From Candidatus Avelusimicrobium bubulum (GTDB lineage: Bacteria; Elusimicrobiota; Elusimicrobia; Elusimicrobiales; Elusimicrobiaceae), in NCBI GenBank assembly GCA_902798835.1, contig CADBYN010000004.1:1-64000 (forward strand): a DNA stretch of 64,000 bases, written 5' to 3'. The translations under genes were made by a program, and so were the position numbers. Below, piece by piece: positions 12,880 to 35,332 of the stretch. Within the stretch, counting starts at the first letter, position 1. Each line of letters opens with the position of its first letter. The notes under the pieces are model-generated. The model ran no database searches, was not told where the DNA came from, and saw only the letters and a program-made list of their open reading frames with translations.

Positions 12880-12888
12880 ACGAGTTCC

Positions 12889-13776: not shown

Positions 13777-13778
13777 AA

Positions 13779-17892: not shown

Positions 17893-17899
17893 ATTCAAA

Positions 17900-18646
17900 C
17901 TATTCTACAATTTCGACTGTAATGAACAAGAAAAGGGAACGTTGTTCTTCTGTTACGTCTTTGCTCTTGAACAGGAGCCCGATTAACGGAATTCTGCCCA
18001 GGAAAGGCACGCGGTCTTCGCTTACGTTGCGTGCACTGCTTTTCAGCCCGCCAATGACTAAGGTTTCCCCGCTATTCAATTCCACGTGGGTCTCTACCGA
18101 GCGGTTCGTAAAAGAGGGCGCCGTAGCCGTACCGATTACCACCGTACGGGAATAGTCTACCGTAGATACTTCCAACTGTACACTCACGTCAATAATATTG
18201 TTACGTTCCGGGATGATCGTAGGAAGAACGTTGAGCAAAATACCATAATCTTCCAACTGAGATCCTACCCCTTGGTTATTCACTACAGGTATCGGAACTC
18301 TACCCCCTACGGTAATACGGGCTTGGTTTCCGGAAGCCGTTACAATTTTAGGATTGGATAATACCTGGGCACGCCCTTCGGTTTCCATCAAACGCAAGCG
18401 CGTAGCAACCGCCGTTTTACGTTGAAATTCACCCAAGGATAAAATACCAGGAATCGTGGCCTCTTCAAAATCAAACAATTGGTTCCAAGAAAACCCCTTT
18501 ACACTTTGCAGCGTACCGCTGATTTCCACTACGTCAGCGCTAACGGCTACCAGCCGTGTCTTTTTAGCATGCACGCTACAAGGCGTCAGCATACTAAGTA
18601 AGAAAATCGCTCCTGCAACTGCGTAAGTAATTTTTCTATTTGTCAT
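17900..18646 (-). CDS. Minimal secretin of the Tad pilus (CpaC/RcpA-like)
   Basis: Outer-membrane channel subunit. It has a signal peptide (about 1-27, ending CSVHA) and then almost only the secretin C-domain: MRLMETEGRAQVLSNPKIVT type block, ARITVGGRVPIPVV, EDYGILLNVLPTII, ELNSGETLVIGGLKSS and VPFLGRIPLIGLLFKSK. These are the classical secretin landmarks. At 248 residues it is about half the usual CpaC/RcpA length (about 450-500). The periplasmic BON and N1 domains that dock to the inner-membrane parts are missing, apart from a short segment of about 45 residues. Another protein here, perhaps the TPR protein or the CpaB-like protein, may replace that link. Confidence 0.88.
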   Translation of the reverse strand: MTNRKITYAVAGAIFLLSMLTPCSVHAKKTRLVAVSADVVEISGTLQSVKGFSWNQLFDFEEATIPGILSLGEFQRKTAVATRLRLMETEGRAQVLSNPKIVTASGNQARITVGGRVPIPVVNNQGVGSQLEDYGILLNVLPTIIPERNNIIDVSVQLEVSTVDYSRTVVIGTATAPSFTNRSVETHVELNSGETLVIGGLKSSARNVSEDRVPFLGRIPLIGLLFKSKDVTEEQRSLFLFITVEIVE

Positions 18647-18657
18647 GTGTCATCCCA

Positions 18658-19413
18658 TTAGTTAAATAATTTATCAAATGTTGCAATTTCCATTAAGTAG
18701 TTCGTTACGTCTCCGTGAGAACGTAAGATGACCGTAATTTTGCCCTGTTGTTGGGCTAGTGCCAAATACTGGGCATCACGCGGGGAAAGTGCCAATGCTA
18801 AAGAAACGCTATCCGAATAGGCAGAAGCATCTTCATCTTTGCTCTTTAACGCACTGGCGGACTTGGCGTCTAATCCTTGTCCTAAGTCATTACCCACACC
18901 TAATACTTTAATGTTCTGCAAAAGGGTTACCGTTACATTTTGATGTCGGCCGTCTTTCATATCCGCTTCAAATGTAAACAAAATATCCACGTTATCATCC
19001 GGTTTAATGAGCGAGGCCGTAGCCACCGGGATATCGTTGACAATATAACCGCGCATCTGTACCGGAATTTTGCTGGAAAGCCCCGCTTCCGGAGACAAGG
19101 AAGTGATGGCATATTTAGAAATCTGGTTTCCTTTGGGAATTTGAATACGCGCCACAGCGTTTTCAATTGCTTTAAAATCCGCATCGGTTGTATAGGTAAA
19201 AGCATCTTTTTGCAAATAGGCAGCCGGTATGGGAACCGTTTTAATAGAAGCACGGTTGATTACTTCACGCTCTTTAATATCCCGCGTGGGAACAAACACA
19301 TATTTAGGATTTTTGGAGTCGTTCAATTTTTTCTCTGCACGACTTACAATCATGGCATACACAATGGCCGCTAAAATGGCCAATACCAACGGCAATAAAA
19401 AACCTCTTCTCAT
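18658..19413 (-). CDS. cpaB: CpaB/RcpC, Tad pilus assembly protein
   Basis: 251 residues. An N-terminal membrane anchor (about 5-22, FLLPLVLAILAAIVYAMI) is followed by a SAF domain (VPTRDIKEREVINRASIKTV ... IPKGNQISKYAI). The RcpC/CpaB-type domain comes after it (GYIVNDIPVATASLIKPDD, VDILFTFE ... VTLLQNIKVLGVG). CpaB sits in the periplasm and is thought to gate or stabilise the secretin. It lies 11 bp upstream of the short secretin, the usual Tad order. Confidence 0.93.
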   Translation of the reverse strand: MRRGFLLPLVLAILAAIVYAMIVSRAEKKLNDSKNPKYVFVPTRDIKEREVINRASIKTVPIPAAYLQKDAFTYTTDADFKAIENAVARIQIPKGNQISKYAITSLSPEAGLSSKIPVQMRGYIVNDIPVATASLIKPDDNVDILFTFEADMKDGRHQNVTVTLLQNIKVLGVGNDLGQGLDAKSASALKSKDEDASAYSDSVSLALALSPRDAQYLALAQQQGKITVILRSHGDVTNYLMEIATFDKLFN

Positions 19414-19454
19414 TTTATCTCCTTACAACTTAAATTAAATAATCCAAAATCTGT

Positions 19455-19940
19455 TTATCGCTGATCCGAACTTAAGTACGCCTTTTCCACCGGCATACGC
19501 GCCGTAGCGGTTAACCTTCGGATCCCTTCCCGGCGGGGCTCATTGGCCAAAATATAACTCGTCCCCGGGAAAGCCAACTTTAGTGGATATACCACCGTTA
19601 CTACCACATCTTGGTGCCGGTGTTTTTTATACATAGGGTCCATACCCGTTGTTTCCACCTTCACCTGCACGGTAAGCCTATCGGCTTCCTGGCCAAACAC
19701 TTTACGTTTGGCGTGATCAATCTTTTGCTGCATTATTGTCCGGTTTGCAAGGCCGCTGGGCTTATCTACCCCAACTAACGAAGCGATACGGGCAAACTCA
19801 TAGGAAGCGTGATTTAATACAACCGTTCGGTAAGCGATATTGCCATACTCCAACACGAAGAAAATCACCAGCAGGAACACTGGCAAAATAAGCATTAACT
19901 CTACGGTTACTTGGCCACGCTCCCTATGAAATAGTTTCAT
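19455..19940 (-). CDS. TadE-like pseudopilin
   Basis: 161 residues. The N-terminus MKLFHRERGQVTVELMLILP shows the short basic leader, a cleavage Gly, and the Gln-xxx-Glu pattern of TadE pseudopilins. A hydrophobic helix VFLLVIFFVLEYGNIAYR follows, with a mixed globular domain of about 120 residues. It lies 3 bp after the second Flp pilin gene. The similar protein at 3426..3968 is a distant paralogue. Confidence 0.88.
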   Translation of the reverse strand: MKLFHRERGQVTVELMLILPVFLLVIFFVLEYGNIAYRTVVLNHASYEFARIASLVGVDKPSGLANRTIMQQKIDHAKRKVFGQEADRLTVQVKVETTGMDPMYKKHRHQDVVVTVVYPLKLAFPGTSYILANEPRREGIRRLTATARMPVEKAYLSSDQR

Positions 19941-21393: not shown

Positions 21394-22473
21394 CTACGGG
21401 ATTAATATCTTTACCACCTTTTGGCAATGTTCGCGCCCGTTATAGGCTTTAAAATCTACCAGGCCGAAGTATACACCGCGTGCCACTTTCTTGCCGTGTT
21501 GGTTGGTACGATCCCATCTGCAGCGCAAGGCCGCGTTACGTACGTTGGCAAACGCGTTCAAGTCCACACGATGGTACTGACCATCCGCATCTTTCACGTT
21601 GTTATCCGGTTGGAAGTACAGGCTCGATCCCATGGTGGTTTGATAGTTATTCGCATCCACACATGTATAGTCTGCGTCGCGTACTAAGTCACCGGCCAAG
21701 TTGAAGTACTTAATGGATACCGTACCCGGCACCGGCATCTTGGTAATTTCGAGCGTACCTTTGCTGGCATCGTTGAGCGGGTTGGGGTAGAAGAACACGG
21801 TCTTCTTCCAATCTTCACAGACAAACCGTCCGTCGCCGATAGCGATAGTCGCTTTGTGCAAGTTCTGATACTCGTACGTATCAGCCACACGGGCGATTTT
21901 CCACTCATTGGGATTTTCCGCCTTGTCATTTCCGAGCAAGATCTCACCCGTTACCGAGTCGATCGCCGCCGTATCGAGCGACGTTACGAAGCGGAACGGA
22001 TATATCCCGTCGGGTACTTCTTGGCCCGCATAATCCAGGCCGTCCCACACTTCTTCGACCAGCGTGGTACCGGGGCGGATACCCACAATGGAGCGCACAA
22101 GCACTTCGCGGATATCTTGTACTTCTAACCCAGTGGTCGGGTTACGCAACGTACCTTTGGAGTAATCAAAGATGGTGGTACCCGGTTTTAAGATTTGGAT
22201 AGCTACTTTCATCGGCACAGAGACCTGATAGCCGATCTTCATATTTTGGCCACGTTGAGAAATGGCGTAGTTATCGTTCTCTAACAAGTCGAATACTTTT
22301 AACAGATCCGCGTTCAAGGTAATGGACTTGACCGTCGGTTCATAGAGTCCGGCATCGGGGTAATTCCGCGCCGTCAAACGCACCTCATAGATACCGGGTT
22401 TAACGTAGTTACCGGTATGGTCGGTGCCGTCCCAATAAATCTTGCGGATTGCGCGAGCACATATGGTCTTCAA
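21394..22473 (-). CDS. C-terminal part of the giant FlgD-Ig repeat protein (split frame)
   Basis: About 359 residues with no signal peptide, which continue the preceding large protein in the +1 frame. They contain a FlgD-Ig-like unit at the very start (IRKIYWDGTDHTGNYVKPGI then YEVRL), a second (EEVWDGLDYAGQEVPDGIYP), and a last one ending CRWDRTNQHGKKVARGVYFG. The C-terminus (KVVKILIP) is that of a complete protein. The apparent start is a TTG within the overlap, and no ribosome site precedes it. It is best read as the 3' end of one long gene, interrupted by a single-base shift near 22470. Confidence 0.85.
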   Translation of the reverse strand: MKTICARAIRKIYWDGTDHTGNYVKPGIYEVRLTARNYPDAGLYEPTVKSITLNADLLKVFDLLENDNYAISQRGQNMKIGYQVSVPMKVAIQILKPGTTIFDYSKGTLRNPTTGLEVQDIREVLVRSIVGIRPGTTLVEEVWDGLDYAGQEVPDGIYPFRFVTSLDTAAIDSVTGEILLGNDKAENPNEWKIARVADTYEYQNLHKATIAIGDGRFVCEDWKKTVFFYPNPLNDASKGTLEITKMPVPGTVSIKYFNLAGDLVRDADYTCVDANNYQTTMGSSLYFQPDNNVKDADGQYHRVDLNAFANVRNAALRCRWDRTNQHGKKVARGVYFGLVDFKAYNGREHCQKVVKILIP

Positions 22474-25400
22474 GTGCTACGATAGCCACTTCCACCTGAG
22501 CCGCGCGGGAGATCGAGAAGTTGATCTCATAGGGCGGGATGAAATGCAACGTGGTGCTAGACGCATTGAAAAGTTGCGGTGCGTTGGGGAACACGGCTAC
22601 GCTGCCGTCCAAGAAGTACACCGGCCCGCGGGTAACGTTGATTTTGTGGACCACTTTATCCGAGGCGTAGAGGTAATCTTCCTGTTGGACGTCGATGTTG
22701 TTCTCTTTTCCGTATTCTTCCCCTCTTCTAAACGGTTCGCCGGAAATAGTATAGGTATGTCCGCTGCCAAACGTGGTGTTTGCATCACGCAACTTATCAT
22801 AATAGTAGCGGTTGAACGGCTCGTTGGAGCGCGCGGAGATGAAGAACGGATATTGACCGTCGGGCACCATTTCGTAAGGGCAGTTGGCTTTTTCTTTAGA
22901 GCCTTTGCACTTATTGATTTCTTCTTCCGTATGGCGGCCGGCATCCGGGGTGGGGTTGTAGAAGTACAACGCATCCCATTCTTCCATTACAATTCCGTCA
23001 TCGCCGATACGCAAGCTGGAGCGGTCAAACGTGTGGATCGGCTGCAAGCGCACATCCACTACGCCCGATGAGGCCTCCCCTGCATTGGCGGGGTAATTGG
23101 TAAAGTTTTTATCGTTTACATAGATACACGCTGTTTGGGTTTGGTTAACCTTGGCAGGATCTACATAACAAGATTGTCCCGCAGCAGTACAGGGTTCACC
23201 ACCTACTCTTGTGAATACGGCACCATCTGTCTCTCTATCGCATACCCGCGGCGGCCAAGCAGCCAAGGAAGTGGAAGGCACATCCAATACTTCTTGTTTC
23301 AAGTAAATAGTATATTTATTGCTAAACGGCTCGTTGTTGTGATAATGATGTCCTTCCGGTAAATTTTCCGGGTCATCGGCTGGATCTTGATTTAAGTTCG
23401 TCAAATCATCATTCAAATCTCGATTTCCATAAATATCATGTTCAGCAACAGCGGTCCAAGTATTGCGATACATACCATTCACCAATTGTACTTGTGAGAC
23501 ACCCACTTCCAAATCAGCGGGGCTGACAGCTGCAAAGGCGATTCCATCCTGTGCCGGCGTAAAAGTTTGTGACACAGCTAAACTTTCTAATCCGGTTTTC
23601 TTCGCTTGATACACACCTGTTACATGCGCGTCATTATACTCGCCGGTGGTACTATTATAATGAGGGATGACTACATCCTTATTATATATATTCACCTGCG
23701 CGTTCATAGTTTTGGACAGATGGTACGAAATCGTGGCTTTGGCGTTGCTATCGCCATATACGTCCGTGGTGGACACATCTACCACGCGGTACATATCCAC
23801 GGGGAAGACCTCAATGGCTTCGTTGCTCATAGCGGGGAACATAGCGTCCTTCGCTTTGACGCGGAACATGTACGTGCCGGGGTAGACCATACGGCCTTGA
23901 TCGTCGCGGCCATCCCACGTTAAGGTATTAAGTTGCGCAGCTACGTTCGGCTCGCCCTCTTGCAAGGTTAAGTGTTTCACTATTACGCCGGCGGTGTTTT
24001 CCACGGTGGCGATTACTTGTGCATCGCGGTCCAAGGAATATTTAAAGATATACGGATCCAAACCATACGCCGTTGGGCTCGATCCCAAGGTGGCGTAGCT
24101 GGCGGGTTGCATGGTGATACCCACCAAGCCGCGTTCCAATTCCAAGGTGCCCACGGTGTATTTTAAGGTTTTTACACCGGTAAAACATTGGTTGTTAATT
24201 TCTTTTCCGTCACCAGAACAGGTAGCTTGCGCTGTGAATTTAGGCGATTTCCCATCTGCAGACCCAATGGCGTTTACATATTTGCCATTATAAGGTATTT
24301 CTGCCCATAATACATAGACGTAGTTACCATCCGGCATCGGGGCACCGTAAGCGTAAGTTTCCGAACGGTTGGTGGCGGTAGCAATTTGCCCGTTCGCCAT
24401 TTTTTCGCCTACTGCATAGGAGCGCACACAATTGGTCGGATTGCCGGAAGCATCTTTGGCTTGGCAGGTACCGTCCCAACGTTGCGTGTAATTCATGCGA
24501 CCGGATTTTTGCTCCACACTACGATATACTAATGAACCGGTAAAATCGGTTGCATTCGTACTAATGGTAGGCCCGGTTCCCGTGGGTTTGGAAGAATCGG
24601 TTAAAACTTCGGATACACCGTTAGGGCCCGTGAATGTAGTGCCCGGAGTGTATACTTCCCAATATACGGTAGAAGGTTCCGTCGGCACGTAAGAAATGGT
24701 AGCATAGGCGGTGGACTTTTTGTTAAGCCCAGTCACTTGCACATCCGTCAGTTTTAAGGGATCCAACGACACTTGACGTGTTACCGCGCGCGAGAAGTCA
24801 ATGCCCGGCCATTCATCTTGGGATTTGGCTTGAATAGAGGCAATATAATTGCCCGCCGGCAAGAGGAACCCTTCATCATGGCGGCCATCCCATGAATCAA
24901 AATCGGAGATTTGCGTATCTTTGTCGGTACCTTTCATACCTTCGCCGGTACGCGGTTGCCAATCCACCAAAGTGCGAACAATAACACCCGTAGCCGCCGT
25001 ATAATCTCCCCCCGCAGCAAAACTAGCTTCATTGGTAGAATTACCCGTTCCCGGAACAACTCCGTACGCATAAGAAGCATTATCGGCAGTAGACGCATCA
25101 AAAATGGCAATGCGCACGTCGGCATCTTTACTTAAACGATAGGTAAATGTGTAAGGTTGTGCGGACACCGGAGTAATGGTACCTACCAAGCTGGGGGTAC
25201 TGCGCACGGTGTGCACGTTGGTTACGTCAATTTGTATCGGGATTTGGGTGGCCCCGTTGTGGCCGGGATACACACCCGTTTCTTGAATTTCAATACGGTC
25301 TGCAATCAAACCGTCCGAAGGTACATTGGTGTAAGTGGTGGCGCGGTAACCGAATTGTCCGTTGGATTTACCAAACTCGCCGGCAATTTCATAAAAACCG

Positions 25401-26566
25401 TCCCACCCGGTGCAGAAATTAAGTTGTGCATTCGTCTCCGCCCCGTTAAAAACAAAAATTACACAATCACTATGACCTGGCCCGGTACAACATCCTTGAT
25501 AAGTAGTTGAGGAAACCCCTGGGTTACATGATGCAACCTGGTAGGAATATAACTGGTTCTTTTCTTTGGCAGCTGCATACGTTGTTGACGTGGACCAACA
25601 TTTTGATGGTTCCGTAGCACCCGTCAAGCTGACAGTACATGTACCACTTGTACTTCTTGTAGCACATGTACCACTCTTTGAAGAACCCGTACAAATCCAA
25701 ATATTCCAATTTTCGCTCACCGTTGTATACAACCGACATGTAGCAGCGCCATCCGGACTACAAGTGTACGTCCCGTCTCCTGTTACTGTACATGTTACCG
25801 TTCCTACAGCATCTGTTCCATTACAAATCCAGTGAGCGCCCACACATTCGGCTACTTGTGTATTTGAACCGGATGTCGAATCTCTTCCAGCGTTGGAACA
25901 GCGATAAGAACCACAGGTATATCTGCTAGGATCGCTAACATCTTGTGCCGGGTACACATCGATGGAACGAATGGTAGGGGTTTCATCCGGGTTTTTGGGG
26001 TTTTTGCCGTTGTAGTATTTAAAAATATCAAACGTAATGCGCTGCAAGGGGAACGCAATAGAATACGTAGATTGGCCTACGGGCAAGTTACTGCACGCAT
26101 ACGACGCGCACAACCCCAAACAATGGTTAGGGTAGGCGTTGGCAGTAGTCGGCGCGGGGTAAGGTTGGTCGTACTCAATGAGGCCCGAGCTCACCCACGG
26201 GTCATTTTGCGTTGCATTGGAACTAGGATTGACCTGAGAATACGGAGACACAATAAAACTACGGTCATCCGTTTCCGTACTTCCAGTATCGGTGTCAGCA
26301 GCAGGCCAAGGCAATAGCTTTCCGTTTGTCGCAGTCGCTTCTGATATAAAGCCGTTACAATATAACGCTCTATCCTGGGCAGAAGTGGAGCCGTCCGTAT
26401 CTGTATCAGCTTTATAGCCGTTTGTATAATATACCGCAGTACCGATGGTGTTGACCGTTTGGGCGAAAAGCGGCGCGCACAGCGCTACAAATAAGATTGT
26501 TAAAATGGACGTTTTTACCGTCTGAGGTTTACAAAAAGTATGAAGTAAATGTTGAAGTTTTGTCAT
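22409..26566 (-). CDS. Giant secreted protein with FlgD-Ig-like repeats and Cys-rich insert
   Basis: About 1385 residues from the ATG giving MTKLQHLLHTFCK; this start puts a signal peptide (SILTILFVALCAPLFAQ) near the N-terminus and has AGGG 12 nt upstream. Several FlgD-Ig-like units are visible by their WDG motifs: SWDGRHDEGFLLPAGNYIAS, QRWDGTCQAKDASGNP, LTWDGRDDQGRMVYPGTYMF and EEWDALYFYNPTPDAG. Residues about 220-420 are an extremely Cys/Ser/Thr-rich insert (about 20 cysteines) with more A+T-rich codons than its surroundings. It ends out of frame (RHRPYR) while the repeat continues in the next frame (21394..22473). As first gene of the Tad operon and neighbour of a PorV-like protein, it may be a surface adhesin or tip protein; that is inference. 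Confidence 0.85.
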   Translation of the reverse strand: MTKLQHLLHTFCKPQTVKTSILTILFVALCAPLFAQTVNTIGTAVYYTNGYKADTDTDGSTSAQDRALYCNGFISEATATNGKLLPWPAADTDTGSTETDDRSFIVSPYSQVNPSSNATQNDPWVSSGLIEYDQPYPAPTTANAYPNHCLGLCASYACSNLPVGQSTYSIAFPLQRITFDIFKYYNGKNPKNPDETPTIRSIDVYPAQDVSDPSRYTCGSYRCSNAGRDSTSGSNTQVAECVGAHWICNGTDAVGTVTCTVTGDGTYTCSPDGAATCRLYTTVSENWNIWICTGSSKSGTCATRSTSGTCTVSLTGATEPSKCWSTSTTYAAAKEKNQLYSYQVASCNPGVSSTTYQGCCTGPGHSDCVIFVFNGAETNAQLNFCTGWDGFYEIAGEFGKSNGQFGYRATTYTNVPSDGLIADRIEIQETGVYPGHNGATQIPIQIDVTNVHTVRSTPSLVGTITPVSAQPYTFTYRLSKDADVRIAIFDASTADNASYAYGVVPGTGNSTNEASFAAGGDYTAATGVIVRTLVDWQPRTGEGMKGTDKDTQISDFDSWDGRHDEGFLLPAGNYIASIQAKSQDEWPGIDFSRAVTRQVSLDPLKLTDVQVTGLNKKSTAYATISYVPTEPSTVYWEVYTPGTTFTGPNGVSEVLTDSSKPTGTGPTISTNATDFTGSLVYRSVEQKSGRMNYTQRWDGTCQAKDASGNPTNCVRSYAVGEKMANGQIATATNRSETYAYGAPMPDGNYVYVLWAEIPYNGKYVNAIGSADGKSPKFTAQATCSGDGKEINNQCFTGVKTLKYTVGTLELERGLVGITMQPASYATLGSSPTAYGLDPYIFKYSLDRDAQVIATVENTAGVIVKHLTLQEGEPNVAAQLNTLTWDGRDDQGRMVYPGTYMFRVKAKDAMFPAMSNEAIEVFPVDMYRVVDVSTTDVYGDSNAKATISYHLSKTMNAQVNIYNKDVVIPHYNSTTGEYNDAHVTGVYQAKKTGLESLAVSQTFTPAQDGIAFAAVSPADLEVGVSQVQLVNGMYRNTWTAVAEHDIYGNRDLNDDLTNLNQDPADDPENLPEGHHYHNNEPFSNKYTIYLKQEVLDVPSTSLAAWPPRVCDRETDGAVFTRVGGEPCTAAGQSCYVDPAKVNQTQTACIYVNDKNFTNYPANAGEASSGVVDVRLQPIHTFDRSSLRIGDDGIVMEEWDALYFYNPTPDAGRHTEEEINKCKGSKEKANCPYEMVPDGQYPFFISARSNEPFNRYYYDKLRDANTTFGSGHTYTISGEPFRRGEEYGKENNIDVQQEDYLYASDKVVHKINVTRGPVYFLDGSVAVFPNAPQLFNASSTTLHFIPPYEINFSISRAAQVEVAIVALEDHMCSRNPQDLLGRHRPYR

Positions 26567-26735
26567 TTCGTTTTTAGTCCCTTGCAAGGTTTTATTTACT
26601 ACCATTGTAGTAAATTTCACGTATAAAAACTACATACAAACCGCGCTTTGTTTTTATTCAAAACAAACCGCAGTTTACGACATTTTTTTCTGCGTAGAAC
26701 TGCCTAAAATTTCTAGGCGGGAACTACACTCCTAA

Positions 26736-26856: not shown

Positions 26857-28368
26857 TTATTCTTTTTTGTAATCGGCAGTCTGGTCGACCACTTCGCGAT
26901 ACGCAGCAAAGTGCCCGCGGCCGTTTTTCTTAACTACGTAGAGTGCCTTGTCGGCTTTTTCCAACAGGTCTTCGGACGAAGAAGCATCCGTGGGGAAAGA
27001 GGCAATCCCTTGGCTGATGGAAATGTGAATTTCTTCGCCGTTGGTGTACTTGGTGGGCAGCGTAATGGCATTGATGCGGTCTTGCAAACGCTTAGCAATA
27101 ATTTTGGATTCATCACTATTGGTGCTGGGCAGCATAATGACCATTTCATCCCCCCCAAAACGGCACGGCACATCCGTTTGGCGCAAGCTGGTGCGAATAA
27201 TACGGCTCACTTCCTGCAAGGCCCAGTCCCCAATCTGGTGGCCGTAGTTGTCGTTGATTTGTTTGAAAAAATCAATGTCCAAAATCAGTAGCGATAACGT
27301 TAAATTAAACCGTTTGGCGCGGTACATTTCTTCGGCAAATTTTTCGTTGAAATAACGGCGCACCGGCAAGCGCGTCAGTTCGTCATAGTTGGAAAGTTCC
27401 TGCACGCGCTCAAACAAGCGCGCGTTATCGATCGACAACGCCATTTGCGAAGCAAATTGCTGCAGCGAAATAAAATCCAAATAGCCAATTCTTCGGCGGG
27501 AAAGCACATTATCAAACGCCAAAAAACCTACTTTACTGCGCTGCACTTTTAAGGGAATATAAATAACGCTGCGCGTGGAACGATACGTAGCTTCTGCATC
27601 AAATACTTCTTTCAAAAGGGATTGTTCCTGCTCGCCGATTTCTTCTTGCGTTTGACGCGTCACTTGCCCGGAAATATCCACGCAAAGCGCGCTCTTAATG
27701 CGCCGCGCATAGGCATCGGTTAAATACAAACGCACCCGGTCAAAGCGGAAATATTTTTGCACCCCTTGCAAAATAATCTCCAAGCCGTCTTCCAGGCGCA
27801 GCGAAGAAGCAAACACCGTCGACAAATCATTGAGCGCGGTGGAAACATTTAAGCGTTGGTTTTTGGCTTGGTCAATTTCCGTGTTGCGCAAATTGTGTGA
27901 AATTTCTTGCCCCAGTGCCTTGATCAGTTCCTTTTCTTGCGAAGTAAATCCGCGGCGTTTATTAAACCGCTCCAAGCGCAGCACGCCTACTTTGTCTTGC
28001 ATGTAGTTGTACACTTCGCCGTTTTTTAAACCCATGCTGGGGCGCTGCCACTTGAGCAGTACATAAATAGCGGGATAACTTAAATCTTCCGTTTCGGTAA
28101 TACCCTCTTGCAAGAGTTTGCGCAAAAAATTAGACTCGCCTATCACGGAAATATCTTCTTGTTTGTCCATGCAGTATTCTTTTTTGCACATCATGCGCAG
28201 CGACAAGATAGCACGCTCTTGCTGCCAGTCAAAAAAGTAAATGCGATCGAGCTTAAATAAATTGCGTAAAACAGGCAGCGCGCTTTCCAATAGTTCGCGT
28301 TTGTTTTGAAACGCCTGGTTTAGCTGCTTATGAAATTTATAAAGGGTATACGATTTCTTATCAAACAT
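26857..28368 (-). CDS. GAF-GGDEF diguanylate cyclase
   Basis: 503 residues, no membrane segment. One or two GAF-like sensor domains (about 20-160 and 175-320; the second is clearer, with VRLYLTD and YIPLKVQRSKVGFLAFDN) precede a GGDEF domain (about 325-490). The active-site loop is FGGDEM at 404-409, an accepted variant of GGDEF. An RxxD inhibitory site (Arg396-Asp399) stands five residues before it. The metal-binding Asp lies in LILDIDFFKQINDNYGH. It should make cyclic di-GMP from two GTP. The ATG is 2 bp behind the stop of a solute-binding-like protein that lacks a signal peptide, so that protein may be its sensory partner. Confidence 0.92.
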   Translation of the reverse strand: MFDKKSYTLYKFHKQLNQAFQNKRELLESALPVLRNLFKLDRIYFFDWQQERAILSLRMMCKKEYCMDKQEDISVIGESNFLRKLLQEGITETEDLSYPAIYVLLKWQRPSMGLKNGEVYNYMQDKVGVLRLERFNKRRGFTSQEKELIKALGQEISHNLRNTEIDQAKNQRLNVSTALNDLSTVFASSLRLEDGLEIILQGVQKYFRFDRVRLYLTDAYARRIKSALCVDISGQVTRQTQEEIGEQEQSLLKEVFDAEATYRSTRSVIYIPLKVQRSKVGFLAFDNVLSRRRIGYLDFISLQQFASQMALSIDNARLFERVQELSNYDELTRLPVRRYFNEKFAEEMYRAKRFNLTLSLLILDIDFFKQINDNYGHQIGDWALQEVSRIIRTSLRQTDVPCRFGGDEMVIMLPSTNSDESKIIAKRLQDRINAITLPTKYTNGEEIHISISQGIASFPTDASSSEDLLEKADKALYVVKKNGRGHFAAYREVVDQTADYKKE

Positions 28369-28370
28369 AA

Positions 28371-29576
28371 TTAACTCTCATAAATAGAAAGCAAATATTC
28401 TATTTCTTTAGCGGCCAAGTCCAATTCCCGATCTAACGACGCTTGTGTAAAACGTCCCTCTACAATTTGCGTAGCACACACCGCCAAAATACGTTTTAAA
28501 ATTTCCATGATTGTACCCATAATTGTAATATTGGGTAACGTTTGCGCGGCAGTTAAAATTTTACCATACACATGCAAGCGCCGGCTGGAAGAAAGCATAA
28601 AAAGCTCCAAAGCCTCGTCGAACGCAGGGAAAACTTCCAAGAGTTTTGCATAATGCACTTGAATTTCCGGCCGGGCGCAAAATTTAATAAAGGCAAGCGC
28701 TTCTTTTTTATGTTGCGAGTGCACATTAATAAATAGGTTCATGCCGGACATGTACGCCGTGGGTGTATCTCCCGTGGACGGAACAGGCACCGTATGTACC
28801 TGGGTACCGCGCCGCGCGTCAAAAGTGCTAAGCCCTAACTTGCGCGAGAGCATCAAACTTGCTTTGCCCGAAACCATCGTTCCTAACGAGCCGCGTTCGC
28901 GCAAAATCGGCATAAAGTTGTTAAGCGCCAAGTTGATATAATCGCGCAAACCGTCTTTGAACGCTTGGCTGGCAACGGAAGTCTTTTTCAAGTCCTGCGT
29001 GAGCAAATCTGCCCCTCTTCCCCACACACACGGCAAGGCGCTGCGTATGGAAAGCGAGCCACGCCAATCCCCGTTTTGCACAGGGTAATAGCCGGGAACA
29101 TCTTTAAATTGCTCGCGAAGTGCGGCGCAAATGTTGAGCAAACCCTCCCAAGTAGAAAGGTCCTTTTCCGGGTTATTAGTTACTAATTTTAAGTGATCTA
29201 CACGATAATGAAGCCCGCTTATATCAAACCACCACGGATAGGAATAGATATCTTTCGTACCGGGTTTATAACAATGATTTTTCAGCGGCGTCAAACATGT
29301 AGAGAGTGAGAGCCCGGGATCTAACTGAGATAAGTTTTCAGCCACGCCCTCACGCACGAGTAGCGCTGTCCAATAGTGTGGAATTTGAATTAAATCGGGG
29401 ATTTCTTCTTCGTGCGTGGGGTTTTTGATCGTAAACATCCGCCGCCAAAGCACGTTGCGCGTAAACACACGCACAGATATGGGAATATTGGGGTTTTCTT
29501 TCTTAAACAAAGTTAAGAAAGACGCGTATGTTTCTTTGGTTTGGTCCCCGGCATCGGGCATGGTCCATAAAATCAT
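28371..29576 (-). CDS. Solute-binding-protein-like protein without signal peptide
   Basis: 401 residues with the layout of family 1 ABC sugar-binding proteins: an opening strand (MILWTMPDAGDQTKETYASF), then IPDLIQIPHYWTALLVREGV, an aromatic hinge YSYPWWFDISGLHYRVDHLK, GKASLMLS, and a C-terminal EALAFIKFCARPEIQVHYAK. Such proteins normally carry a signal peptide or lipobox. This one starts directly with the first beta strand, and a strong AAGGAG site 7 nt before the ATG fixes the start. It should therefore stay in the cytoplasm. No permease or ATPase gene is nearby. Its stop is 2 bp from the GGDEF gene, which suggests a cytosolic ligand sensor for that enzyme. A mis-targeted remnant of a transporter is the alternative. 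Confidence 0.85.
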   Translation of the reverse strand: MILWTMPDAGDQTKETYASFLTLFKKENPNIPISVRVFTRNVLWRRMFTIKNPTHEEEIPDLIQIPHYWTALLVREGVAENLSQLDPGLSLSTCLTPLKNHCYKPGTKDIYSYPWWFDISGLHYRVDHLKLVTNNPEKDLSTWEGLLNICAALREQFKDVPGYYPVQNGDWRGSLSIRSALPCVWGRGADLLTQDLKKTSVASQAFKDGLRDYINLALNNFMPILRERGSLGTMVSGKASLMLSRKLGLSTFDARRGTQVHTVPVPSTGDTPTAYMSGMNLFINVHSQHKKEALAFIKFCARPEIQVHYAKLLEVFPAFDEALELFMLSSSRRLHVYGKILTAAQTLPNITIMGTIMEILKRILAVCATQIVEGRFTQASLDRELDLAAKEIEYLLSIYES

Positions 29577-29593
29577 TTCCTACTCCTTACACA

Positions 29594-30427
29594 CTACCAA
29601 CTGCGCACTTTCATATTGGGATCTATATCCACGTTGGCCTTAAATGGTTTTCCTGTTTGTTGGGCATATTCTAACTTTTTATATGCCGCCAATGCAATCA
29701 TAGCTGCATTATCGGAAGACAATTTGCGCTCTACAAAGTATACTGTTTTTCCTTGTGCTTGTGCACCTGCTTGCATACGCTCGCGCAGCAAACTGTTCGC
29801 GGCAACTCCACCACCGACTGCAATATAGTTTACCTTATATTTCTTAGCGGCAAGCAACGTTTTAGTGACCAAGGTATCCACCATTGCTTCTTCAAAGCTG
29901 GCGCATACGTCGGGCACAGAAATCGTTTGATGATCACGCAAATAATAACTCACGGCCGTTTTAATACCGCTAAACGAAAATTCCCACGTACCCGGCAAGA
30001 GCGGCCGCGGGAATGCAATGGCATCGCGATGTCCTTTTAAGGCTTGGGCTGATACTTGCGGACCTCCCGGATACGGGAGCCCCAACAATTTTGCTACTTT
30101 ATCAAACGCTTCGCCGGCGGCATCATCGCGCGTTTTGCCCAGCACCTTATATTGCCCGTAATTTTTTACATACCAAAGCTCGGTGTGCCCGCCCGATACC
30201 ACCAACGCCACGAGCGGAAATTGCAAGCGGTTTTTGACTTCGCCGCCTTCAAAATCACATGCAAAAATATGTCCTTCCAAATGGTTTACGCCCACCAGCG
30301 GCACTTGCTTGTACGCCGCTAAAGTTTCGGCGGCTACACGCCCCACCATCAACCCGCCAGGCAAGCCCGGCCCACTGGCAAACGCCACACAATCAATGTC
30401 TCTTGGCAGCGTGTGCCCGGCTGGCAA
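29594..30427 (-). CDS. tsaD: TsaD, C-terminal piece (split gene)
   Basis: About 277 residues covering most of TsaD, the Kae1/Gcp-type ATPase that makes the t6A37 tRNA modification together with TsaB, TsaC and TsaE. Metal-binding HxxxH ([10 protein letters not shown]), the ASKHA blocks [31 protein letters not shown] and [14 protein letters not shown], and the closing SSDNAAMIA are all present. The frame is +1 to the N-terminal piece (30393..30575). Comparison with normal TsaD suggests that about 50 bp between ELASRAH and the DIDCVA strand are missing. tsaD is usually essential, so an assembly error is a serious possibility. Confidence 0.9.
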
Positions 30428-30575
30428 GTTCCGGCACTACGCCATGATATTTTTTATGTTCCTCTATTTGGGAATAAATCACGTTACTCAAAAGCTTCTT
30501 CCCGTCTTGCAACACGGCAGCGGAAGTTTCATCACAGGTAGATTCAATTCCTAGAATAGTAAACGTTTGTTTCAT
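30393..30575 (-). CDS. tsaD: TsaD, N-terminal piece (split gene)
   Basis: Sixty residues starting [20 protein letters not shown], the nucleotide-binding opening of TsaD, and reaching the conserved [12 protein letters not shown], where the frame is lost (AAKRH, stop). The remaining protein reads on in the +1 frame from about 30427. The ATG is 3 bp after the ctpA stop. The break falls where GCCAGCCGGGCACAC can be read as ASRAH in one frame and PAGHT in the other, as would result from a deletion between similar short sequences. Confidence 0.88.
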
Positions 30576-30577
30576 AA

Positions 30578-31942
30578 TTATTTCGCGGCTTTATCGTCTT
30601 TCTTAGTTTCCGATTTTCCTTCTTTTTTAGCTTTGCGCTCTTGTGCGGCTTTTTCGGCCTTGGCCTTGGCCTCTTCCAGCGTAATTTTGCCTGTTAAAAT
30701 TTCCACGGCTTGATCCAATACGGGATCTTTCACCTTAAATTCCGGTTGTTTAGTGGCTTTGCCCGGAGTATAGATGATATCGCTATATTGCATAAACACT
30801 TTGGCTTCGTCTTCCGGGGCGAACTCCACTTCCACATCCGGGAAAATTCCCCCCTCGTCGGCTTTGGTTTTATCGCGGTAGTTGCGTTGAATAAGTTTAC
30901 CCGATGGCGTGTAATACTTTGCAATGGTCAAGCGCAGCCCGGCTCCTCCGGATAAAGGCATTACTTGTTGCACACTGGCTTTACCGAACGAACGTTGCCC
31001 CACAATAATAGCACGGTGGTTATCTTGCAGCGCACCGGAAACAATTTCGCTGGCACTAGCAGACCCCTGGTTAATAAGTACTGCCATGGGAATATCGGGG
31101 TATAACGGGTCTCCGTCTGTTTTGAATTCTTGGTAATACTCCGGCTTGCGGCCTTTCGTATACACAATCATCTCGCCATCTGGCAAGAATAGTTTAGAAA
31201 TATCTACCGCCCCGTTGAGTAAGCCGCCGGGGTTAAAGCGCAGGTCCAATACCAATGCTTTCATCCCTTGCTTAGTTAAATCTGCCAGCGCTTTTTGGAC
31301 TTCTTCGCTGCTATGGCCGGAGAAATCAACCAGATACACATACCCCACGTGGTCAGGCAACATACGATGATAAACTACTTCGGGAACGATGATGGCACGT
31401 TTGAGGGTAATATCCGGAATTTTTTCATATTCCCCCGCTTCATTTTTGCGGCTTAATGTAAGTTTTACTTTGCTGCCGGCTTTGCCGCGCATAAGGGAAA
31501 CGGCTTCGTCAAGTTTCATATCCGTCACGTCTTTATCATCCACAAACAAGATGCGGTCTTGCGGCATGATACCGGCTTTGAAGGCAGGGGTTCCGGGCAT
31601 AGGGGTCATTACCGTAATAAAACCGTCTACTTTTTGAAGACGAATTCCCAAACCGCCGAACTCGCCCTTGGTATCATTTTTAAGTTCTTTGTAATCTTTG
31701 GGCTCTAAGTAAGAGGAAAAATCGTCCAGTTCTTCCACCACTCCTTTAATGGCACCGGATACCAGCTGGTCGGTATCGGTAACTTCCACATAGTTTTCTT
31801 TTACAAATTCCAACACGTCCACAAGGGTACGTAATTTTTTGAGGCTGCCGTCCACCGCCCCATAGGCATACGGAAACAAGGTTCCCACAAAAAATAATAC
31901 TGCCGACCAAGCTACAATTTTATTTAATTTAGTTGTTTTCAT
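30578..31942 (-). CDS. ctpA: CtpA-like C-terminal processing protease (S41)
   Basis: 454 residues: signal/anchor segment (about 10-28), an N-terminal helical domain, a PDZ domain (about 95-165, [20 protein letters not shown]), and the S41 protease domain. The catalytic dyad is Ser296 in [13 protein letters not shown] and Lys321 in RSFGKASVQ. These periplasmic proteases trim or degrade proteins by their C-termini, and in several bacteria control murein hydrolases. The gene lies 8 bp after an EnvC-like murein-hydrolase activator, which fits that role. The last 35 residues are a Lys/Ala/Glu-rich tail ([20 protein letters not shown]) without homology to the family core. Confidence 0.93.
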
Positions 31943-31950
31943 AATTCCCC

Positions 31951-33096
31951 TTATTTAAGCCAATCTGTTGGATCTACCGCCGTAGTTCCCTGGCGAATTT
32001 CAAAGTAAACAGCGCTCTGCCCCGTACCGGAAGAAGCTTGGGTATCTCTGCCTACGGTACCCACTATTCCTTGCGTTTCAACTTTGCTACCTACGGACAC
32101 GCGAATTTCTTTTAAAAATCCGTAGATGGTAAAAAATCCTTTGGCGTGATCGATAATTACTACATTGCCATAAGACCTAAACGGCCCCGCGTAAATCACG
32201 CTTCCGGCGGCACTGGCTTTTACGGCAGTTCCCGTGGAGGCGGCAATTTTAATACCATCTCTAAAAATCCACGTATTCAAATCGGAGCGATATTCCTTAC
32301 CGAACTGGCTAATCACTTTGCCTTGCACCGGCCAGGGCAACGAATGCGGCGGCACATTAATTTTAGGGCCTGAAGATTTAGTAGAAGTATTTTTCTTGGC
32401 GGCCTCTTTACGTTTACGCTCGAAATTAGCCAATAAATTATTCAATTCCGAGGCAGATTTATTGAGCTCATTAATTTCTTTGCGCACGCTATCCACTTTG
32501 CGTTTGGTAACGTCTAGATCTTGTTGTTTCTTTTGGAACGACTGAGAAATAACGGCCTGTTCTTTTTTAAGTTTACTGCTTTGCGCTTGCAAGGTTTTAT
32601 TGCGTGCGGTAAAAGCATCAAAACGTTCTTTGGCTTCCTGGTTTTCATTTTGAAGGGCCACCGCAAACGAAGCCTTATGCGTAAGCATACGGTCCACAAA
32701 AATATCCAATTCTGTTTGGTCTTGTGCGCAAACGTCACAAGTCGGTTGCATATAGTAATTTTTCATTTCTTCCCACACAACCCCTTTCCACATGGGCATA
32801 CTGCGCTCCAAAGCGGTGCGTTTATCTTCGATAGAAATTAAATTTTGCTCAATCATCGAAATATCCATTTCCACTTTATTTTTCATTTTCTCAGCTTGCG
32901 CCTGTTGATTTTGCAAAGCGGAAATTTCTTTAGAAATTTTCTTTTCTTGTTCGCGATATTTTCTCAGTTCTGCTTCTTTTTTTTGCGTTTGATTTTTTAA
33001 TTTAGCTAATTCTTGTTTGCGATCGGCCGCTTCATCTGCCCACGCAGAGGAAGTGCACACACACGCTACAAAAAAGAGTCCTAAAATTTTTGCCAT
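31951..33096 (-). CDS. EnvC-like murein hydrolase activator
   Basis: 381 residues: signal peptide (ending SAWA), about 200 residues of coiled coil (two long blocks rich in Lys, Glu and Gln), and a LytM/M23 domain at the C-terminus. The zinc ligands of active M23 peptidases are replaced: FRDGIKI stands for HxGxD and TIYGFL for HLS/HxH. The domain is thus probably non-catalytic, as in EnvC, which activates amidases at the division site under control of FtsEX. The gene overlaps the 3' end of ftsX by 16 nt, which supports this pairing. Two cysteines at CDVC in the coiled part are unusual. Confidence 0.88.
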   Translation of the reverse strand: MAKILGLFFVACVCTSSAWADEAADRKQELAKLKNQTQKKEAELRKYREQEKKISKEISALQNQQAQAEKMKNKVEMDISMIEQNLISIEDKRTALERSMPMWKGVVWEEMKNYYMQPTCDVCAQDQTELDIFVDRMLTHKASFAVALQNENQEAKERFDAFTARNKTLQAQSSKLKKEQAVISQSFQKKQQDLDVTKRKVDSVRKEINELNKSASELNNLLANFERKRKEAAKKNTSTKSSGPKINVPPHSLPWPVQGKVISQFGKEYRSDLNTWIFRDGIKIAASTGTAVKASAAGSVIYAGPFRSYGNVVIIDHAKGFFTIYGFLKEIRVSVGSKVETQGIVGTVGRDTQASSGTGQSAVYFEIRQGTTAVDPTDWLK

Positions 33097-33866
33097 TTAG
33101 AAAATGTCCATCCCAATAGTCCGCAACACACCACCAACAACACTTGGCGGTGCCACGTGGTAAAATAGGCTAGCACATCCGCCAGCGGCCCCAGCGGGCA
33201 AATCAGTATTCCCAAGGCAACTGCCGACAAAGCACCGGCTAACACGCCGGAAATTACGCCGCCCAACGCGTGGCCTTGTTCGTACGGGAAGGCCTCCACC
33301 AAAAACATAAAAGCAATAAATCCCAAGAGGGCCAACGCGCCCAATATCCGCACCAACTTTGAAGCGAACCCCACGTAAAAAAGCATTTGCGCGTGTTGCT
33401 CGTTGTAATGCGGGGTAAGGTCTTCGTACTCAGCATTTAAATTATCTACAAACGGGCGAATATTATTTATCGCCGGGATAGAAAGCGTAATTTCAAAATA
33501 AGCCGGCATTTGATTTTTGCCCATCAGCAATAGCGAATCTACCAATTGCGGATTTTTGCGCTGCACAACCGCCAGCGCATCTTCCGGTGACAAAAGGCGC
33601 ACGCTGGTAATATCTTGTTTTTGGTTCAGCGTTTCTCCCCATTGTTCCAGCACCGTACTTTCCGCCGGCGCATCCACGGTTAAAATTACTTTAAAAGATT
33701 CCTTGAGCGTATTGTAGTAATCTTCCAACCCTTTGTCCACAAATAACAGGGCTTGTGTGATTAACGCGATAGAAAACACAAGCAAAAACAGTTTACGATA
33801 CAAGTGTCCCACTTGTTTAGAGCGAGTACGTTGTTTCGGTTTGGTTTCTTCAAAAAGTTCGTCCAT
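33081..33866 (-). CDS. ftsX: FtsX-like division protein
   Basis: About 261 residues from the ATG giving MDELFEETKP, which follows AGGGGAG; a TTG six codons further up is less likely. Topology is that of FtsX: cytoplasmic N-terminus, membrane segment (LFLLVFSIALITQALLFV), an extracellular domain of about 120 residues with the ECD pattern (ESFKVILTVDAPAESTVLEQ, ITSVRLLSPEDALAVVQRKN), and three further membrane segments. FtsX with the ATPase FtsE controls cell-wall hydrolases at division. No ftsE is present here, although it normally precedes ftsX. The protein also works upstream of the overlapping EnvC-like gene. Confidence 0.88.
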   Translation of the reverse strand: MDELFEETKPKQRTRSKQVGHLYRKLFLLVFSIALITQALLFVDKGLEDYYNTLKESFKVILTVDAPAESTVLEQWGETLNQKQDITSVRLLSPEDALAVVQRKNPQLVDSLLLMGKNQMPAYFEITLSIPAINNIRPFVDNLNAEYEDLTPHYNEQHAQMLFYVGFASKLVRILGALALLGFIAFMFLVEAFPYEQGHALGGVISGVLAGALSAVALGILICPLGPLADVLAYFTTWHRQVLLVVCCGLLGWTFSKWQKF

Positions 33867-33880
33867 AATCTCCCCTAAAT

Positions 33881-35332
33881 TCAAGCTATCGTCTTGCGGT
33901 AAAGCTCTAAATAGACCTGCGCTGATTTATCCCATGACACGTCCGTACGCATGGCACTGCGCATCAGCCGGTTCCAAAGCACGCGGTTACGGGTGTACAT
34001 CGTAAGCGCCTTTACTACTGCGTTATAAATCCCGGCGGGGGTAAATAAGTCAATAAAGAATCCCGTAGCGGTATTTTCATTTTTGCCATCAAACCCAACG
34101 ACCGTATCCACTAGTCCCCCCACTTTTGAAACAATCGGCAATGTACCGTATCGCATCGCAATAAGTTGGGAAAGCCCGCACGGCTCAAAACGCGAAGGCA
34201 TCAAAAACATATCCGCACCCGCATAAATTTTGTGTGCCAATTCTTCATCCAAGCGGCCCGTATAACTGACCGTTCCGGGATAAGACCGAGCCAAACTTTG
34301 GTAAGCTTTTTCGAGCATTGGATCCCCTTTTCCCAAAATGACAAATTGCGCTTGTTTATGCAATTTTTCAATCAGTCCAATCACTACGTCGAGCCCCTTT
34401 TGATAATCCAACCGCGATACAATCCCGATGATCGGTTTATCGCCATCTTGTGTCAGCTTACATTGTTGCTGCAAAACCAACTTGGCGGCTAACTTACCAC
34501 GGGTGGATTCGTTGGCATCATATCCTACCGAAAGGACCGGGTCAATTTCCGGGTCCCAAATATCGGTATCGATTCCGTTGACGATACCGCAGAAATTTTT
34601 GCTCCGTGCACGCAGCACCCCGTCCAAGCCAAAACCCATAGCCGAGTCGCGCTGAATTTCGCGGGCATAGTTGGGGCTGACGGTATTGATATTATCGGCA
34701 AACACAAGCCCGCTTTTTAAGAAACTAATACCGCCATAATATTCAAATTTCTCCGGCGTGTAATCTACCGGGTGGAAACCCGCTTTACGGAAAGCCGAAT
34801 ACGAATAATGCCCCTGATAAGCGATATTATGAATCGTGTATAAACTGCGCGTGCGGGTATAGAAAGCATCCAACTTATAGACGGTTTTTAAGTAGGCAGG
34901 GATTAAGCCGGTTTGCCAATCGTGGCAATGGATAATATCCGGGCGAAAGCCGATAAATTTACAACCCTCTAGCACCGCGCGGTTAAAGAAAATAAACCGC
35001 TCGTCATTATCGGGGAATTCGCCCTCTTTATCGCGGTACAAATCCGGGCGGTCAAAATATTTGCGGTTTCCTACAAAGAACACAAGCACGTTACCCCAAT
35101 TGATGTAGGATAGCGAAGCCTGCTCGATTTTATCGCCCACCGGAATCAAATACACTCCGGGCACAATTTTTAGTGAAGACACCCGCACAATGTTTCTGTA
35201 GTGCGGCAAAAACAACAAAACCTTATTCCCCTTATAGCCGGCAAACTGCTGGCATAAAGCCCCAACCACGTCAGCCAAACCGCCCGTTTTACAAAACGGG
35301 AACGCCTCGCTAGCGGCTAAAACAATGTTCAT
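33881..35332 (-). CDS. glgA: Glycogen (starch) synthase GlgA
   Basis: 483 residues, standard GT5 family length. The N-terminal ADP-glucose loop is KTGGLADVVGALCQQ; other landmarks are HCHDWQTGLIPAYLK, TIHNIAYQG, GIDTDIWDPEID, SRLDYQKGLDVVI and the catalytic SRFEPCGLSQLIAMRYG. It adds glucose from ADP-glucose to alpha-1,4-glucan chains. Its ATG overlaps the scpB stop by 4 nt (ATGA), and other glycogen genes are not in view, so its place among chromosome-segregation and division genes is unusual. Confidence 0.95.
   Translation of the reverse strand: MNIVLAASEAFPFCKTGGLADVVGALCQQFAGYKGNKVLLFLPHYRNIVRVSSLKIVPGVYLIPVGDKIEQASLSYINWGNVLVFFVGNRKYFDRPDLYRDKEGEFPDNDERFIFFNRAVLEGCKFIGFRPDIIHCHDWQTGLIPAYLKTVYKLDAFYTRTRSLYTIHNIAYQGHYSYSAFRKAGFHPVDYTPEKFEYYGGISFLKSGLVFADNINTVSPNYAREIQRDSAMGFGLDGVLRARSKNFCGIVNGIDTDIWDPEIDPVLSVGYDANESTRGKLAAKLVLQQQCKLTQDGDKPIIGIVSRLDYQKGLDVVIGLIEKLHKQAQFVILGKGDPMLEKAYQSLARSYPGTVSYTGRLDEELAHKIYAGADMFLMPSRFEPCGLSQLIAMRYGTLPIVSKVGGLVDTVVGFDGKNENTATGFFIDLFTPAGIYNAVVKALTMYTRNRVLWNRLMRSAMRTDVSWDKSAQVYLELYRKTIA

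What the first reader, a model, noticed from the sequence alone, without database searches (positions are those of the whole stretch)
28368..29576. Cytosolic solute-binding-like protein coupled to a diguanylate cyclase
Seen: a full-length family 1 binding protein without any signal peptide, its start fixed by AAGGAG, and a GAF-GGDEF gene starting 2 bp after its stop. Known: periplasmic binding proteins normally feed transporters. No transporter genes are near. Inference: it may sense a cytoplasmic sugar or oligosaccharide and control c-di-GMP production, perhaps linked to the glgA gene in the same operon and to pilus genes.
Basis: partly seen in the sequence, partly recalled or inferred. Interest (0 to 1): 0.7.

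Follow-up and report, generated by a model that had tools for sequence, protein, structure and literature searches.

The report
Intracellular binding protein paired with c-di-GMP synthase
Across much of the bacterial phylum Elusimicrobiota, a sugar-binding-type protein that normally works outside the cell has no export signal and is encoded directly before an enzyme that makes the signalling molecule c-di-GMP, so it probably senses a metabolite inside the cell and sets that signal.

Summary
The window comes from an Elusimicrobiaceae genome (near Ca. Avelusimicrobium). At 28371-29576 (-) lies a complete family-1 solute-binding protein (SBP): PF13416/PF01547, AlphaFold2 pLDDT 90, best match cellobiose-bound CbpB, Z 43.9. 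It has no signal peptide. Two bases after its stop begins a cytosolic GAF-GAF-GGDEF diguanylate cyclase (DGC) with intact active and inhibitory sites. The pair is lineage-wide. SBP occurs in 128 of 131 genomes of the order, and the DGC lies immediately downstream wherever the contig reaches that far, including other families and another class whose remaining neighbourhood differs. None of 114 SBP loci shows a signal peptide. The genome's only ABC permease pair is peptide-type. Hence the SBP is not a transporter subunit; most likely it is the intracellular ligand sensor of the DGC (inference, not assayed). The pocket changed: deep-branching members keep both sugar-stacking tryptophans of beta-glucan binders; most derived members, including this one, carry conserved Arg/Lys there, suggesting a charged ligand. 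The glgA link is not conserved. The Tad-pilus cluster follows the pair in four genomes from both families of the order. SBP-controlled DGCs are known, but with periplasmic SBPs; an all-cytosolic version is a new variant.

The parts
28371..29576 (-). Signal-peptide-less family-1 solute-binding protein (putative cytosolic ligand sensor), 401 aa
   Evidence: Pfam SBP_bac_8/SBP_bac_1; full SBP fold, VIA-align Z 43.9 (rmsd 2.5, 382 residues) to CbpB-cellobiose 7x0j
26857..28368 (-). Soluble GAF-GAF-GGDEF diguanylate cyclase, 503 aa, RxxD I-site and GGDEM active-site motif
   Evidence: no transmembrane stretch
29583..29588 (-). Ribosome-binding site AAGGAG, 6 nt before the SBP start codon
   Evidence: Read directly
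29594..30577 (-). tsaD immediately upstream (conserved neighbour; reading frame interrupted near its 5' end in this assembly)
   Evidence: intact in relatives
30578..33884 (-). ctpA (30578-31942), envC-like M23 peptidase gene (31951-33096), ftsX (33081-33884): conserved upstream block
33881..35332 (-). glgA (glycogen synthase), adjacent here but not conserved as a neighbour
21394..26620 (-). Large FlgD-Ig surface/secreted protein gene downstream of the DGC (frame interrupted here; one 1647-residue frame in relative L190)
11416..19940 (-). Tad/Flp pilus cluster genes (TadE-like, CpaB/RcpC, MinD+T2SSE ATPase, T2SSF) that follow the pair in several relatives

Best explanation
The SBP is a cytosolic ligand sensor for the diguanylate cyclase encoded right behind it. 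An SBP whose export signal was lost early in Elusimicrobiota closes on an intracellular metabolite; the open or closed form then binds the soluble GAF-GAF-GGDEF enzyme, probably at the N-terminal GAF domain, and changes GGDEF dimerisation and hence c-di-GMP synthesis. c-di-GMP would act on type IV or Tad pili and the cell surface; the genome carries an MshEN-type pilus ATPase and a PilZ protein. Shown: sequence, predicted fold, lack of export signal, lack of a matching transporter, strict adjacency, intact DGC motifs, conservation and remodelling of the pocket. Inferred: physical interaction, direction of control, ligand (a beta-linked oligosaccharide in basal members, more likely a charged sugar or nucleotide-type metabolite in this lineage), output.
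For: Pair adjacency: every locus whose contig extends past the SBP has the DGC next; the exceptions are contig ends. Still adjacent in L167-L170, where tsaD/ctpA/envC/ftsX are not found nearby, and in another class of the phylum. Co-occurrence in the order, counted by hand from the lists: SBP 128/131; DGC 126/131, the two with SBP but no DGC being cut at contig ends (L007, L012); the three genomes without SBP also lack the DGC. Even the divergent DGCs of family f11 have a weak SBP homologue directly upstream. No signal peptide: 90 of 114 SBP frames have under 15 residues between the previous stop and the fold start, and none of the rest shows a hydrophobic leader. Full SBP fold. DGC soluble with intact catalytic residues and I-site. 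No sugar-type ABC permease in the genome; mostly two PF00528 hits in the genus, one to three in fragmented assemblies. Pocket: Trp equal to Tt W67 invariant (113/113), acidic residue at Tt E117 in 110/113, two stacking Trp kept in 6 basal loci and replaced by a basic pair in 98 of 107 others. c-di-GMP machinery present.
Against: No interaction, ligand binding or cyclase activity has been measured. Adjacency and co-transcription do not prove physical contact. GAF domains can bind small molecules themselves, so the DGC could have its own input. The N-terminal GAF, the presumed docking site, is poorly conserved. No fused SBP-DGC protein was found. The 113 pocket sequences include loci held twice and are related by descent, so the residue counts are not independent events.
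Confidence: 0.62

Rival explanations
1. The SBP fold has been co-opted as a structural adaptor that no longer binds a ligand; it activates, stabilises or localises the DGC constitutively.
For: Both sugar-stacking Trp positions are lost in most members, and an obligate partner would also give strict adjacency.
Against: Other pocket positions stay under strong constraint: Tt W67 equivalent invariant, Tt E117 equivalent acidic in 110 of 113, a conserved basic pair in 98 of 107, which fits re-specialisation better than loss.
Confidence: 0.18
2. The SBP is an intracellular enzyme or metabolite carrier on the SBP fold that shares an operon with the DGC without touching it.
For: SBP-fold proteins with other cytosolic functions exist (PMC9602780 mentions cytosolic proteins with alternative functions recognised by SBP profiles).
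Against: The pair stays together where the surrounding genes are different (L167-L170), and the full-length DGC orthologue was not seen without an SBP-like gene in front wherever the locus could be read.
Confidence: 0.12
3. The SBP is exported without a recognisable signal and serves an importer elsewhere in the genome; the DGC is an unrelated neighbour.
For: SBPs of this family normally work outside the cytoplasm with ABC importers (PMC9602780).
Against: No signal peptide in any of 114 loci and no room for one in 90; the only permease pair in the genome is peptide-type; adjacency to a soluble DGC throughout.
Confidence: 0.03

Closest known systems
NspS-MbaA polyamine sensing (Vibrio cholerae; also Sinorhizobium meliloti)
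   Same: A solute-binding protein works as ligand receptor for a GGDEF protein and so sets c-di-GMP (PMC8967002, PMC9993111).
   Different: NspS is periplasmic and acts on the membrane receptor MbaA (GGDEF-EAL). Here the SBP has no signal peptide and belongs to a sugar-type family, and the DGC is soluble with two GAF domains and no EAL.
Beta-glucoside/cellodextrin-binding SBPs: CbpB of Clostridium thermocellum (7x0i-7x0n), beta-glycoside-binding protein of Thermus thermophilus (7c63-7c71)
   Same: Same fold over the whole chain (Z 41-44); W67 and E117 equivalents conserved; basal Elusimicrobiota members also keep W41/W90 and W256/W296.
   Different: Those are importer subunits that bind neutral glucans. 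The window protein has R40 and K246 at or beside the two stacking positions, no transporter and no export signal.
Soluble GGDEF diguanylate cyclases with N-terminal sensor domains, e.g. phytochrome-DGC of Idiomarina (5llx)
   Same: Sensor domains, coupling helix, GGDEF with I-site.
   Different: Input is proposed to come from a separate binding protein.
SBP-activated sensor kinases and chemoreceptors
   Same: Ligand-loaded SBP binds a signalling receptor; genes often adjacent (PMC11113362, PMC9602780).
   Different: Those described there act on transmembrane receptors from outside the cytoplasm.

Membership tests
Family-1 solute-binding proteins (PF01547/PF13416) | Profile match and two-lobed SBP fold over the whole chain | tested here: met
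   E 2e-14, above the curated cut-off; Z 43.9, rmsd 2.5, 382 aligned residues
ABC-importer SBP (extracytoplasmic) | Signal peptide or lipobox for export | tested here: not met
   fold starts at residue 2; no leader in 114 relatives
ABC-importer SBP (extracytoplasmic) | Cognate permease/ATPase genes nearby or in the genome | tested here: not met
   the only PF00528 pair in the genome is peptide (Dpp/Opp) type, next to its own ATPases; genome 96% complete; same low count in the genus
Beta-glucan-binding SBP subgroup (CbpB / Tt beta-glycoside-binding protein) | Pocket Trp that stack on the sugar (Cb W90/W296, equal to Tt W41/W256) | tested here: not met
   R40 and L247 (K246 beside it) in the window protein; both Trp kept only in basal relatives L164, L166-L170
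Beta-glucan-binding SBP subgroup (CbpB / Tt beta-glycoside-binding protein) | Equivalents of Tt W67 and E117 | tested here: met
   W69 in 113/113, D/E118 in 110/113
GGDEF diguanylate cyclase | GGDEF domain with catalytic residues | tested here: met
   PF00990, E 4e-47; D364, N372, D373, D381, G405, G406, E408, K480 invariant; motif reads GGDEM
GGDEF diguanylate cyclase | Inhibitory RxxD I-site | tested here: met
   RQTD before GGDEM
GGDEF diguanylate cyclase | Makes c-di-GMP from GTP | not testable with these tools
   Needs an enzyme assay
NspS-MbaA-type SBP-controlled c-di-GMP receptor | SBP gene next to the GGDEF gene | tested here: met
NspS-MbaA-type SBP-controlled c-di-GMP receptor | Periplasmic SBP acting on a membrane-bound receptor | tested here: not met
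   neither protein has a signal peptide or transmembrane helix
NspS-MbaA-type SBP-controlled c-di-GMP receptor | Ligand-dependent binding of the SBP to the GGDEF protein | not testable with these tools

The most novel reading that the evidence does not exclude
A wholly intracellular two-protein c-di-GMP sensor, ancestral in part of the phylum Elusimicrobiota: a former transporter binding protein retained in the cytosol reports an intracellular metabolite to a soluble diguanylate cyclase. Its pocket was re-specialised from neutral beta-glucans in basal lineages to a charged ligand, such as a sugar phosphate or nucleotide sugar, in Elusimicrobiales.
Probability: 0.35. Interest if true: 0.78.

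Novelty: new variant of a known kind. Interest (0 to 1): 0.62.

Why it matters
Binding proteins are treated as extracytoplasmic almost by definition, and their known role in signalling is to report outside ligands to membrane receptors. A lineage-wide case in which the receptor and the c-di-GMP enzyme are both cytosolic would show that this sensor fold can be internalised to report metabolism to a second-messenger pathway. It would also give Elusimicrobiota, for which a full-text search found no study of c-di-GMP signalling, a defined and testable signal input.

Tried and rejected
Fusions: long stop-to-stop frames in GC-rich genomes (L158-L160, 720-750 aa) are overlapping frames, not fusions. 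The 780-aa frame at G041 joins an SBP-like region with a leader to a permease domain, an ordinary transporter SBP; similar long frames at L032 and L171 were read the same way. N-terminal GAF as specificity marker: too divergent (mean column identity 27%). glgA/glycogen link: not conserved. Outside the phylum: the one genome-wide scan listed 80 loci; those whose titles name the organism are Elusimicrobiota, a few are only called 'bacterium'. It used a single peptide pattern, so presence in other phyla is not excluded. Literature: searches on cytoplasmic SBP plus diguanylate cyclase found only periplasmic cases; most subscription papers are not held. That G096 (one contig, 1,643,562 bases) may be Elusimicrobium minutum Pei191 is from memory and not tested.

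Full report
Observation. The ORF at 28371-29576 (-) is a complete 401-residue solute-binding protein (SBP). Pfam gives SBP_bac_8 (E 2e-14) and SBP_bac_1 (E 8e-10); phmmer finds the Thermus beta-glycoside-binding protein in the PDB (E 2.8e-20, residues 3-394). AlphaFold2 gives a full fold with mean pLDDT 90.4, the first strand starting at residue 2. VIA-align places it nearest to CbpB with cellobiose (7x0j, Z 43.9, rmsd 2.5, 382 residues) and the Thermus protein (7c69, Z 43.1, rmsd 2.7, 387 residues), which are close to a tie. AAGGAG stands six bases before the ATG. The diguanylate cyclase (DGC) begins 2 bp after the SBP stop.

The DGC. Residues 327-485 match GGDEF (E 4e-47) and 192-315 a GAF domain. 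The model (pLDDT 86.8, pTM 0.56, so the domain arrangement is uncertain) shows GAF1 at about 1-142, a long helix, GAF2 at about 192-295, a coupling helix and GGDEF; assigning residues 1-142 to a GAF domain rests on the strand/helix pattern and was not confirmed by Pfam. The closest solved structures are GGDEF domains (Z 26) and, over the whole length but with large rmsd, a phytochrome-DGC. The catalytic residues are invariant across 34 relatives; the I-site reads RQTD and the motif GGDEM, with GGDEI/GGDEV in relatives. The highest 19-residue hydropathy is 0.96, so there is no transmembrane helix.

No export signal. Of 114 relatives, 90 have under 15 residues between the preceding stop and the fold start, and none of the others shows a hydrophobic leader. 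The maximum 19-residue hydropathy in the first 60 residues of the window SBP is 0.35, against about 1.6 for the upstream exported proteins EnvC and CtpA.

No transporter. The genome (96% complete) has two PF00528 permeases, adjacent, beside two ABC ATPase genes; by reading the sequences they are the Dpp/Opp peptide type. Most genomes of the genus searched have exactly two such hits, and a few fragmented ones one or three. The other family of the order has more permeases, yet no such gene was needed to explain the loci read, where the pair stands between tsaD and the surface-protein genes.

Distribution. In the phylum search the SBP profile found 128 of 131 genomes of the order and a scatter of other families. 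The DGC profile found 126 of 131; the two genomes with SBP but no DGC are those whose contigs end inside the DGC (L007 and L012), and the three without SBP also lack the DGC. These tallies were counted by hand from the printed lists. In the loci read, the DGC follows the SBP wherever the contig extends far enough; the exceptions are contig ends (L039/L110, L098, L108, L126). In most loci the block ftsX-envC-ctpA-tsaD stands before the pair. In L167-L170 it does not, but the pair is intact; two of these (L168, L170) belong to another class. Family f11, first counted as DGC without SBP, proved to have a weak SBP homologue directly upstream of the DGC.

Pocket. Residues known from the two solved relatives were mapped on 113 locus sequences, some held twice. 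W41, W67, E117 and W177 are the positions mutated in the Thermus entries (titles). The Trp equal to Thermus W67 is invariant, and the acidic residue equal to E117 is D or E in 110. The two Trp that stack on glucose in CbpB (W90, W296; PMC9601137) are kept in six loci (L164, L166-L170), which also keep other positions shared by the Thermus and Clostridium proteins. They are absent in the other 107, where position 40 is R/K in 100, position 246 is R/K in 104, and both in 98. In a tree the six group next to the Thermus and Clostridium proteins, so the sugar-type pocket is most simply ancestral. The six also lack a signal peptide and are followed by the DGC, so internalisation and pairing most simply came before the pocket changed. 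A charged ligand for the derived pocket is an inference from the basic pair, not a result.

Neighbourhood and output. glgA adjoins the block in the window and some relatives but not in many loci of the genus, nor in the other family, so a glycogen link is not supported. Downstream, a large FlgD-Ig protein, a PorV-like protein and the Tad/Flp pilus cluster follow in G029 and G096 (family f1) and in G043 and G046 (family f2), but were not found in the stretches fetched for G040, G113 and G159. The genome has three GGDEF, one EAL and one HD-GYP-type hits, one PilZ protein and a PilB-like ATPase with an MshEN domain, so c-di-GMP can plausibly be made, degraded and read, with pili a reasonable target.

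Interpretation. Direct control of the DGC by the SBP is the simplest account of a cytosolic SBP without transporter that is tied to one soluble DGC over such a depth. The precedent is NspS-MbaA, in which a periplasmic SBP controls a membrane GGDEF-EAL protein (PMC8967002). A survey of SBPs describes them as extracytosolic, with about 1% of retrieved proteins predicted cytosolic, and lists DGC activation by SBPs only under transmembrane receptors (PMC9602780). I found no description of an all-cytosolic pair in the open library. It is filed as a new variant of SBP-controlled c-di-GMP signalling, not as an NspS-MbaA member, because the membrane-side features are not met.

Limits. Nothing here measures binding, ligand or activity. 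No complex prediction was possible, and the scan beyond the phylum used one peptide pattern only.

Noticed in passing
window 30427-30577: The 5' part of tsaD is out of frame with the rest (stop codons in the upstream part), while relatives have one open frame of about 340 aa; a sequencing or assembly error or a recent frameshift.
   Followed up: partly
window 21394-26620: A large FlgD-Ig-domain protein is split into two frames (1403 aa and 359 aa) that overlap near 22409-22473; relative L190 has a single frame of 1647 residues.
   Followed up: partly
window 15433-15626: A 24-bp tandem repeat (about 6.5 copies in 15433-15587, 97% matches) lies where the Tad ATPase ORF overlaps the next pilus ORF; the ATPase frame is longer than in relatives (882 versus about 720-770 aa).
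   Followed up: no
L181 1897-3285, L182 2601-3926, L183 2585-3970: Family f11 genomes carry a strongly diverged SBP-like protein (E about 1e-8 to 1e-13, no Pfam hit for L181) directly before the same DGC.
   Followed up: partly
L033 4181-6523 (also L032, L171): SBP-like region with a leader in one long frame with an ABC permease domain (PF00528 hit in the same 780-aa frame of G041).
   Followed up: partly
L178 800-1267; L179 193-1929: The single PilZ protein of the genome lies just upstream of a miaA-like gene, and the MshEN domain is on a PilB-like ATPase next to a secretin-like gene: candidate c-di-GMP targets.
   Followed up: no
window 28374-28400 and A1 alignment C-terminus: The SBP ends in a strongly conserved motif (E-x-x-Y-L-L-S-[ILV]-Y in most Elusimicrobiales), a possible contact site with the DGC or simply the core of the last helix.
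   Followed up: no
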